From assembly GCA_009841145.1 (NCBI GenBank), contig VXMJ01000074.1, positions 1 through 32,477 on the forward strand: a stretch of 32,477 bases of DNA, given 5' to 3'. Positions within the stretch are counted from its first letter, which is position 1. Each line of letters begins with the position of its first letter. Source of the stretch: Caldilineaceae bacterium SB0661_bin_34. Its GTDB lineage: Bacteria > Chloroflexota > Anaerolineae > Caldilineales > Caldilineaceae. The position numbers were made by a program, and so were the translations under genes. The notes below the pieces were generated by a model. The model ran no database searches, had not been told where the DNA came from, and was given only the letters and a program-made list of their open reading frames with translations. Of this stretch, positions 28,565 to 32,422 are shown one piece after another.

Positions 28565-28625
28565 GACAATGCGTCGGGACCATCACACAAGGACCACGAC
28601 AGCAATAACCAAGCGCGGCGGCACG

Positions 28626-28787
28626 ATGACAGTCGGGATACTGAACATCTCGGGCATGGGACACAGCCGACGGCTGGCGCGGGCCCTTGCGGACGTGGAC
28701 ATGAGCGATTTCCTGCGGATACTCGAGTACAAGTTCCGGCGGCACGGCACGGAGTTCGTCAAGGTAGACCGCTGGCACCCCTCCAGC
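28626..28787 (+). pseudogene. Second type of TnpB, C-terminal fragment
   Basis: The plus strand encodes MTVGILNISGMGHSRRLARA, then LADVDMSDFLRILEYKFRR and GTEFVKVDRWHPSS. This is the well-known TnpB/OrfB stretch from RuvC-II (normally ..IEDLNISGM.RNRRLARA..) through the ..EF...LEYK..W.G......DR..PSS block just before the zinc finger. The catalytic Glu position reads Gly and the following Asp is changed, and the zinc finger and RuvC-III are missing. The sequence breaks off abruptly at the methyltransferase repeat. It is a dead relic of an IS605/IS607-type element, different in type from the TnpB at 1268-2392. Confidence 0.65.
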
Positions 28788-28788
28788 A

Positions 28789-28844
28789 GGAGGGGCAGTT
28801 CCAGTTGTCCGACCCTCGCATTGGATGGCATGTCGCGCCTTCAG
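28789..28844 (-). repeat. Copy of the methyltransferase start region
   Basis: These 56 bases match 30445-30500, which spans the ribosome-binding site and first codons of the C5 methyltransferase (ggaggggcagttccagttg is identical in both). On the minus strand this copy also reads as a start, MPSNARVGQLELPL, compared with MPPHSITGQLELPL in the gene. The frame continues to 28583 without methyltransferase motifs, so it is a broken duplicate. Confidence 0.6.
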
Positions 28845-29006
28845 AACCGAACCAGTGCATTTGAAGGGATTGGACTCTCCACACTCGGATCAACCGGTAG
28901 CACCCCCCGCATGCCCTGTGAGTTAGCTTGAAGGTGAGGGGAGAACACTGTAAAGAAGGTTCTGGCACACAGTCTGCACCGGACTGGGCCGGTGCAAATC
29001 GGTAAT

Positions 29007-29275: not shown

Positions 29276-30487
29276 TCAACCGGATTGATTGAGCGCCAGT
29301 ACCGGCTCCAAAATCTCCTCGGCAAGGAACCGCACCACCGGCACCGCGACGCCGTCGCCGGTCAGGTGGTAGGCCTCGTTGTAGTTTTCGGGCAACACAT
29401 AGCTGTCGGGCAAACCCATGAGGCGAGCCGTCTCCCGGCTTGACATCAAACGCGATCGCGTTCGTGCTCCTTCGACTTCCAGTACCAACTGTCGGCTGGA
29501 GCCTCCCGTCGGTGTACGCAGGCAACCTGCGACACCGTCGAAACGGACTTCGGCCCGCAACGCCTTGGCACCGTTGGAGTCGGTGCGTGTCCGCCTGTAC
29601 ACCGTGCCAACCACACGACGTTCCAAACGTCGCATCTCCTTCACCTTGGCTTGGTGGCGTTCGTTCATCAGGTTAAGCAGTTTGGCAGTCTCGTCCGGAT
29701 GGTGCCAAGAGACACTGGTTGGGGCCTCCTCAATGAGATCGGCAAGTTGTGCGGAACGGCCGGGCGGCACCGGCAACTTCCACCAGATCCACTCTTGGCG
29801 GAGGCTTTCGGGCAACCGCCGGAACGCCTTGACCAGGGAACCGGTATGGAAGATGCTCCGTTGTCCGGCACCAGCCAGCATCCTCGGTACCTGTGCTTGC
29901 CGACAGACCCCGATCACAAACAGGCGCGGCCTCGACTGGGGCAGGAACATGGCGGCATCGACAACCACGGCACCAAATCGATAGCCCCCTTCATACATGG
30001 CATCGCAAATGCTGATGAAATCCCGACCGTTGTGGGATGTCAGCGCACCGCAAACGTTTTCCAGCACAACCATGGTCGGCGCACGGTCTTGCTCCTTCAG
30101 CTTCAGCATCAGATTCCAGAAGGGCCAGAACGTACCGGAGCGATCGCCGTCCAACCCATCGCCTCTTCCTGCCAGGGACAGATCCTGGCAGGGAAACGAT
30201 GCCCAGGCCATGTCTGAGGAACCCGGGAGCTGTTCCGGAGTCACATCACGGATGTCTTGGCACACAGGTTCCCAATGCCAGTTGCACCGGTAACTGCTCG
30301 CCTTTTGGCGGCTGAAGTCGTTGACAAACAGCGATGTCCAGTTGCGGCCAAGGCCAGCCCTGACCATCCCGGCCCCGGCAAAGAACTCATAGAAGGTTCC
30401 GGCTGGGGGAGGATTCACGGGTGTTGCCGTGCGTTGCACGGGCGGGAGGGGCAGTTCCAGTTGCCCGGTAATCGAATGAGGTGGCAT
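29276..30487 (-). CDS. C5 cytosine DNA methyltransferase
   Basis: This 403-residue protein transfers a methyl group from S-adenosylmethionine to C5 of cytosine. Conserved motifs are in standard order: I, FYEFFAGAGMVRAGLG (32-47); IV, FPCQDLSLAG with catalytic Cys100; VI, ENV (143-145); VIII, QSRPRLFVIG (184-193); a target-recognition region at about 205-335; IX near RETARLMGLPDSY; and X, GDGVAVPVVRFLAEEIL. The length is typical for a modification enzyme of a type II system. The ATG at 30487 is preceded by CTGAAGG. It is transcribed away from a GIY-YIG nuclease gene about 400 bases off, so the two probably form a restriction-modification system. The recognition site cannot be read from the sequence. 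Confidence 0.93.
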   Translation of the reverse strand: MPPHSITGQLELPLPPVQRTATPVNPPPAGTFYEFFAGAGMVRAGLGRNWTSLFVNDFSRQKASSYRCNWHWEPVCQDIRDVTPEQLPGSSDMAWASFPCQDLSLAGRGDGLDGDRSGTFWPFWNLMLKLKEQDRAPTMVVLENVCGALTSHNGRDFISICDAMYEGGYRFGAVVVDAAMFLPQSRPRLFVIGVCRQAQVPRMLAGAGQRSIFHTGSLVKAFRRLPESLRQEWIWWKLPVPPGRSAQLADLIEEAPTSVSWHHPDETAKLLNLMNERHQAKVKEMRRLERRVVGTVYRRTRTDSNGAKALRAEVRFDGVAGCLRTPTGGSSRQLVLEVEGARTRSRLMSSRETARLMGLPDSYVLPENYNEAYHLTGDGVAVPVVRFLAEEILEPVLALNQSG

Positions 30488-31986: not shown

Positions 31987-32036
31987 AAAAAAGCCGCAGC
32001 CGGGAAATGGTGCGTGACCATCCTGCCGACTGCGGC
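31987..32036 (-). terminator. Rho-independent terminator of selW
   Basis: On the minus strand GCCGCAGTCGG pairs with CCGGCTGCGGC (11 bp with one G-T pair), and an inner ATGGT/ACCAT stem caps the hairpin. TTTTTTG follows directly. It starts 26 bases after the selW stop codon. Confidence 0.85.
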
Positions 32037-32061
32037 CCTCAAGCCATGTGCAGCGTGCCTG

Positions 32062-32343
32062 TCAGGCAACGGCCTCCATGGACTTCGGCACCATGCCGGT
32101 GGCCTCGGCAACGAGCCTCACGAGCTCGCCTTCCTCGGCGTGACGGCCTGTTTCGGCCTTGGAGTAGATCAAATTGCCGTCCACAACGACTTCAAACCGG
32201 CCGCCTCCGGCGGCGATCAGCTTCATGGACTCAATCCCAGACTTGAACTCGGTGAAGAGGTCTTCTGCCGCACGGGCAGCCATGGGTGAGTAGTTTCATT
32301 GCAGGCAGAATTCGATCGATACCTTGACAGCTCTGTCGCTCAT
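32062..32343 (-). CDS. selW: SelW-like selenoprotein (Rdx family) with in-frame UGA
   Basis: Read from the ATG at 32343 (GGGAGA 6 bases upstream), the frame gives MSDRAVKVSIEFCLQ, then TGA (32298-32296), then NYSPMAARAAEDLF and on to a normal stop: 93 residues counting the UGA as selenocysteine. Cys13 and Sec16 form CxxU in the context E(F/Y)CxxUNYxP, the redox motif of SelW-type Rdx proteins, which have a thioredoxin-like fold. GGGRFEVVVDGNLIYSKAETGR further on is the second hallmark of the family. CTGCC-cgtgc-GGCAG forms a hairpin whose loop begins 21 bases after the UGA, a plausible bacterial SECIS position. Without recoding, only a 73-residue frame from Met21 would be called, lacking the redox motif. 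A strong terminator follows. Confidence 0.88.
32260..32298 (-). promoter_or_regulatory. Candidate bacterial SECIS element
   Basis: Downstream of the UGA (32298-32296) the mRNA can fold CTGCC (32278-32274) with GGCAG (32268-32264) around the loop CGUGC. Bacterial SECIS hairpins sit directly 3' of the UGA, within the coding sequence, with the apical loop about 16-37 bases away and a G (often GU) in the loop. Here the distance is 21 bases and the loop contains GU. The stem is short, so this is a candidate only. Confidence 0.5.
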
Positions 32344-32422
32344 GACAGTTCTCCCGGATGGTGAACCAACTGCCCCATAGGTTAACGGCAAACCGCCTTC
32401 TTGGCAAGCCCGGTGTGCGTCG

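What the first reader, a model, noticed from the sequence alone, without database searches (positions are those of the whole stretch)
32062..32343. Hidden selenoprotein: SelW-like gene with UGA in a CxxU motif
Seen directly: ATG with a ribosome-binding site, 15 codons, TGA, then an uninterrupted frame to the stop at 32062, with C-L-Q-(UGA)-N-Y-S-P across the TGA and a GG.FEVVVDG block later. Known: SelW-type Rdx proteins carry CxxU or CxxC at exactly this place. A hairpin with its loop 21 bases after the UGA fits a bacterial SECIS, and a strong terminator ends the unit. Ordinary gene callers will truncate the protein and lose its active site. It implies selA, selB, selC and selD elsewhere in the genome.
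Basis: partly seen in the sequence, partly recalled or inferred. Interest (0 to 1): 0.85.

Follow-up and report, generated by a model that had tools for sequence, protein, structure and literature searches.

The report
Bacterial selenoprotein W hidden by UGA
The finding is real: a small redox protein of an uncultured Chloroflexota bacterium is encoded through a UGA "stop" codon that the cell almost certainly reads as selenocysteine; it is a well-conserved member of a bacterial selenoprotein family known since 2005, so it is correct but ordinary.

Summary
Confirmed. On the minus strand, ATG 32343 opens 15 codons, TGA at 32298-32296, then an open frame to the TGA stop at 32064-32062. Read through, the 93-residue protein matches Pfam Rdx (E 1e-18) across the TGA, which falls in the CxxU active site (C-L-Q-U). 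The same genome encodes SelA, SelB, tRNA-Sec (anticodon UCA) and a SelD that itself carries an in-frame TGA. In 41 of 46 searched genomes of the same family the homologue keeps one in-frame TGA; it lies at the CxxU position in every one of the 48 homologous loci read, seven from outside the family. Downstream, a short hairpin with a G-U loop 21 nt after the UGA is conserved with compensatory changes and forces unusual codon choices. Its predicted stability in this species alone is marginal, so covariation and codon bias carry the SECIS case. Three further in-frame-TGA proteins were found in the genome: formate dehydrogenase, an AhpD/CMD-like protein and a UxxC thiol-redox protein. SelW-like CxxU proteins are among the most abundant selenoproteins of marine bacteria and are known to be missed by annotation. 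Verdict: new member of a known kind; interest low.

The parts
32062..32343 (-). SelW-like (Rdx family) selenoprotein gene, 93 residues read through the UGA, TGA stop included
32296..32298 (-). In-frame UGA, codon 16, the U of the CxxU motif (C13-L-Q-U16)
   Evidence: TGA at this position in all 48 TGA-type homologous loci read
32265..32279 (-). bSECIS hairpin CUGCC-CGUGC-GGCAG, loop at 32270-32274, G-U at loop positions 2-3, loop starts 21 nt after the UGA
32344..32357 (-). Ribosome-binding site region (CCGGGAGAACTGTC before ATG), nearly identical in two sister species
31989..32040 (-). Rho-independent terminator: long GC-rich hairpin followed by TTTTTT

Best explanation
This is a functional selW-like selenoprotein gene of a Caldilineaceae-type Chloroflexota bacterium. 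The ribosome initiates at ATG 32343. At the 16th codon (UGA) SelB carries Sec-tRNA(UCA) to the ribosome and recognises the short hairpin 21 nt downstream, so selenocysteine is inserted instead of termination. The product is a 93-residue thioredoxin-like Rdx protein whose Cys13-x-x-Sec16 pair is the redox centre, probably a thiol/selenol oxidoreductase or antioxidant. Shown here: the gene, TGA conservation, family membership, complete Sec machinery in the genome, and covariation and codon constraint in the hairpin. Inferred: the actual Sec insertion and the redox role.
For: Rdx/SelTWH match across the UGA, with solved SelW-family structures as sequence relatives. SelB with its C-terminal region, SelA, SelD with its own in-frame TGA, tRNA-Sec with anticodon UCA. 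TGA kept in 41 of 46 same-family genomes, always aligned at CxxU, and in Acidimicrobiia and Anaerolineae loci. The three family genomes with neither SelB nor tRNA-Sec and without the TGA form are G040, G041, G044. Helix: 92.9% of cells paired, 13 cells with both sides changed against 3.1 in shuffles, 0/500 shuffles as high, and better than every slid register. Codons in the hairpin: AGT in 13/13 Ser against 13% background, TTG 13/14, GTC 27/27, CGT 18/20. Three other in-frame-TGA redox proteins in the genome, each with a hairpin that satisfies the model. UGA is also an ordinary stop in 4 of 9 long window ORFs, so the code is not globally changed.
Against: No protein or selenium measurement exists. 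The hairpin in this species alone is -6.3 kcal/mol bare (-7.6 with flanking bases), borderline for the published bSECIS limit of -7.5, and competing folds are favoured in a 57-nt fold. The hairpin region is not more stable than synonymous recodings. About 8% of all TGA triplets in the window pass the same bSECIS filter by chance (74/911). One congener (G001) with SelB and tRNA-Sec has no detectable copy.
Confidence: 0.97

Rival explanations
1. Pseudogene or sequencing error: a Cys codon TGC/TGT was misread or mutated to TGA.
For: A single base separates TGA from TGC; the window comes from a draft assembly of 102 contigs.
Against: The TGA is conserved in 41 of 46 independent genomes of the family and in other classes, with conservation of the protein downstream.
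Confidence: 0.01
2. The UGA is a true stop and a shorter protein starts downstream at Met21.
For: ATG codons exist at residues 21 and 40 of this species.
Against: Met21 is mostly Arg in relatives; residues 7-20 are conserved and belong to the Rdx match; the invariant Cys13 lies upstream of the UGA.
Confidence: 0.01
3. UGA is read as Trp, Gly or Cys through a genome-wide code change or a suppressor tRNA, not as Sec.
For: A TGA in a coding frame alone cannot tell the inserted residue.
Against: UGA terminates this gene and 4 of 9 long ORFs in the window; tRNA-Sec(UCA), SelA, SelB and SelD are present; the position is catalytic Cys/Sec in the family; the downstream hairpin is constrained.
Confidence: 0.01

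Closest known systems
Bacterial SelW-like selenoproteins (Rdx family PF10262; TIGR02174 CXXU_selWTH; NF041051 SelTWH_Campy)
   Same: Rdx domain across the UGA, CxxU at the N-terminus, G-G-x-F-E-V block, in-frame UGA followed by a bSECIS hairpin; TIGR02174 matched above its cut-off
   Different: NF041051 gives 83.2 bits, just under its cut-off of 88; conserved tail motif YSK-x-x-x-GRHAEEGE shared with other Chloroflexota copies
Eukaryotic selenoprotein W
   Same: Same sequence family and CxxU motif (2npb is a weak sequence match)
   Different: Eukaryotic SECIS lies in the 3' UTR (established knowledge); here it is inside the coding region right after the UGA
Cys-form Rdx paralogues in Chloroflexota (for example G040 C14, L071)
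   Same: Same domain, ITYCxxC motif
   Different: CxxC instead of CxxU, no in-frame TGA, only 31-39% identical to the query

Membership tests
Rdx / SelT-SelW-SelH family | Rdx domain match above the curated cut-off | tested here: met
   PF10262 67.7 bits against 22.6; TIGR02174 50.5 against 34.2
NF041051 equivalog (SelTWH_Campy) | Score above the equivalog's curated cut-off | tested here: not met
   83.2 bits against a cut-off of 88; not filed under that equivalog, only under the broader family
SelW-like selenoprotein | CxxU redox motif with in-frame UGA at the position of the second Cys | tested here: met
   C13-L-Q-U16; invariant C13 and aligned TGA in all TGA-type homologous loci read
Bacterial selenoprotein gene | Sec machinery in the same genome: selA, selB, selC, selD | tested here: met
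Bacterial selenoprotein gene | bSECIS geometry: loop 3-9 nt, stem 4-16 bp, G in the first two loop positions, spacing 16-37 nt (PMC13188914) | tested here: met
   loop 5 nt, stem 5 bp, G at loop position 2, spacing 21 nt
Bacterial selenoprotein gene | bSECIS energy at or below -7.5 kcal/mol (PMC13188914) | tested here: inconclusive
   -6.3 bare hairpin, -7.6 with flanking bases; 25 of 36 distinct homologous loci pass on the bare hairpin
Bacterial selenoprotein gene | Selenium incorporated in the protein | not testable with these tools
   needs 75Se labelling or mass spectrometry

The most novel reading that the evidence does not exclude
In this lineage the SECIS is a weak hairpin in competition with other folds, so that SelW synthesis is tuned or conditional (for instance on selenium supply), while relatives have stronger hairpins.
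Probability: 0.07. Interest if true: 0.3.

Novelty: new member of a known kind. Interest (0 to 1): 0.16.

Why it matters
It corrects the gene model of a protein that standard callers would cut at its active site, and it shows Sec use across a Chloroflexota family (SelB in 42 and tRNA-Sec in 41 of 46 genomes). [quoted passage not shown]

Tried and rejected
Rfam at gathering scores finds nothing in the window. Free energy of the UGA-downstream region against synonymous recodings shows no excess stability, so that test gives no support; positional conservation, covariation and codon bias do. A plain bSECIS filter is passed by 74 of 911 TGA triplets of the window, so it is weak evidence alone. The sigma-70 scan found no promoter in the 134 bases upstream, so the transcription start is unknown. 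The terminator scan missed the long-stem terminator, which folding shows. The Acidimicrobiia loci L009, L010 and L012 have a hairpin in a different register (loop 17 nt after the UGA) and were left out of the covariation alignment. Pseudogene, sequencing error, downstream start and code change were considered and rejected.

Full report
What is there. On the minus strand of the window, ATG at 32343 follows a GGGAG ribosome-binding site, and 15 codons later there is a TGA at 32298-32296; the same frame then stays open for 77 codons to a TGA stop at 32064-32062. The read-through product is 93 residues with the motif C13-L-Q-U16. Pfam Rdx matches residues 7-79 with E 1.1e-18, that is, on both sides of the TGA. 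NCBIfam TIGR02174 (SelT/SelW/SelH) is matched above its cut-off; the narrower equivalog NF041051 falls just short at 83.2 against 88 bits. By sequence, solved structures of the SelW family are found (Atu0228 2fa8, 3dex, 2obk, 2p0g); in the three alignments printed, their second motif Cys aligns with the TGA.

Is the TGA read? The genome (4.34 Mb, 98% complete) has SelB at 297 bits with its C-terminal region in the same frame, SelA at 478 bits, a single strong tRNA-Sec that ARAGORN also calls tRNA-SeC with anticodon UCA, and SelD. SelD itself has one in-frame TGA in SCAG-U-ASK, which I take (from general knowledge of SelD) to be the usual catalytic Cys/Sec place. UGA is not globally recoded: it ends this very gene and 4 of 9 long ORFs of the window.

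Conservation. In 46 genomes of the same family, 42 have a homologue and in 41 it carries one in-frame TGA. Reading the loci shows the TGA at the CxxU position in each of the 48 TGA-type loci examined, including seven from outside the family search: three Acidimicrobiia and four Anaerolineae-type. Across 400 genomes of the phylum, every listed match better than E = 5.4e-24 has an in-frame TGA. SelB is present in 42 and tRNA-Sec in 41 of the 46. Of the five family genomes without the TGA form, three (G040, G041, G044) also lack both SelB and tRNA-Sec, while two (G001, G036) keep them. Two fragmented genomes with the TGA form lack a detected tRNA-Sec (G022, G035), and G022 lacks SelB too. Met21, the rival start, is not conserved.

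The SECIS. Relatives share a hairpin at a fixed place after the UGA: stem columns 19-24 with 30-35, loop CGUGC or AGUUU. On 28 distinct sequences 92.9% of cells pair; three pairs have changes on both sides (C-G/U-A, G-C/A-U, U-A/C-G), 13 such cells against 3.1 in shuffles (0/500), and sliding the partner by 1-3 columns weakens the signal in every case. RNAalifold finds the same helix unprompted. Codon choice in the hairpin departs strongly from the rest of the same genes: AGT in 13/13 Ser (13% background), TTG in 13/14 Leu (19%), GTC in 27/27 Val (29%), CGT in 18/20 Arg (22%), GCG in 19/19 Ala (24%). The sequences are related, so the P values of that call are not independent events, but the two loop types with different amino acids (CGU-GCG and AGU-UUG) both keep G-U at the same loop place. 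The published bSECIS model asks for a 3-9 nt loop, a 4-16 bp stem, G in the first two loop positions, a 16-37 nt spacing and energy at or below -7.5 kcal/mol (PMC13188914). The window hairpin meets the geometry (5 nt, 5 bp, G at position 2, 21 nt) and is borderline in energy (-6.3 bare, -7.6 with flanks). Two negative controls are recorded: the region is not more stable than synonymous recodings, and 8% of TGA triplets in the window pass the filter. The hairpin is therefore supported by comparison, not by energy.

Surroundings. The gene looks monocistronic: a strong terminator starts about 22 bases after the stop (-34 kcal/mol, z -3.8, U-tail). No sigma-70-like promoter was found upstream, and the contig ends 134 bases upstream of the ATG. 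Downstream lie a cytosine-C5 methyltransferase gene and, further on, a NADH dehydrogenase (nuo) operon; nothing suggests a functional link.

Other selenoproteins. Three families known to include selenoproteins were searched in the genome, and each has a member with one in-frame TGA: formate dehydrogenase alpha (CSRA-U-HSPTVAGL), an AhpD/CMD-like protein (CPY-U), and an AhpC-TSA/thioredoxin-like protein (U-INC, UxxC). All three and SelD have a hairpin that satisfies the bSECIS model including energy. The genome thus encodes at least five likely selenoproteins. These four were read but not tested for conservation in relatives.

Known or new. SelW-like CxxU selenoproteins are listed among prokaryotic selenoprotein families (PMC13188914), were the most abundant family in the Sargasso Sea and GOS surveys (PMC1088965, PMC2398784), and were reported as wholly missed by annotation in Epsilonproteobacteria (PMC4607533). 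selA and selB were reported as enriched in sponge symbionts (PMC5649159); that study's bins include Caldilineaceae, though which bins hold the two genes was not looked up. No paper found here describes this gene in Caldilineaceae, but it is an expected member. The taxonomic placement rests on the nearest named relatives (96-97% identical proteins in MAGs titled Caldilineales/Caldilineaceae).

Noticed in passing
G000:C47:14627-16630 (-), L078: Formate dehydrogenase alpha subunit with an in-frame TGA at the likely catalytic Sec site (CSRA-U-HSPT), 719 bits to TIGR01591, bSECIS-like hairpin.
   Followed up: partly
G000:C3:28746-28901 (-), L079: AhpD/CMD-like protein with CPY-UGA (CxxU) and a 7-bp hairpin with loop CGUGAA 24 nt after the UGA.
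   Followed up: partly
G000:C94:32929-33255 (-), L080: AhpC-TSA/thioredoxin-like protein with a UxxC motif (TFG-U-INC) and an 8-bp hairpin with loop GUU.
   Followed up: partly
G000:C40:42966-43913 (-), L081: SelD with an in-frame TGA (SCAG-U-ASK): a selenoprotein that makes the selenium donor for selenoproteins.
   Followed up: partly
window 28569-28931 (+): 120-aa ORF with a borderline Cas12f1/TnpB-like TNB domain match (26.4 bits against cut-off 26.3), possibly a remnant of a TnpB gene.
   Followed up: no
window 29276-30487 (-): C-5 cytosine DNA methyltransferase gene near the nuo operon.
   Followed up: no
L009, L010, L012 (Acidimicrobiia), about 17 nt after the UGA: SelW homologues whose hairpin sits in another register (loop 17 nt after the UGA), so the SECIS position shifted between phyla while the protein was kept.
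   Followed up: partly
G001 (same genus): Has SelB and tRNA-Sec but no detectable SelW-like gene at 97% completeness; loss or assembly gap.
   Followed up: partly
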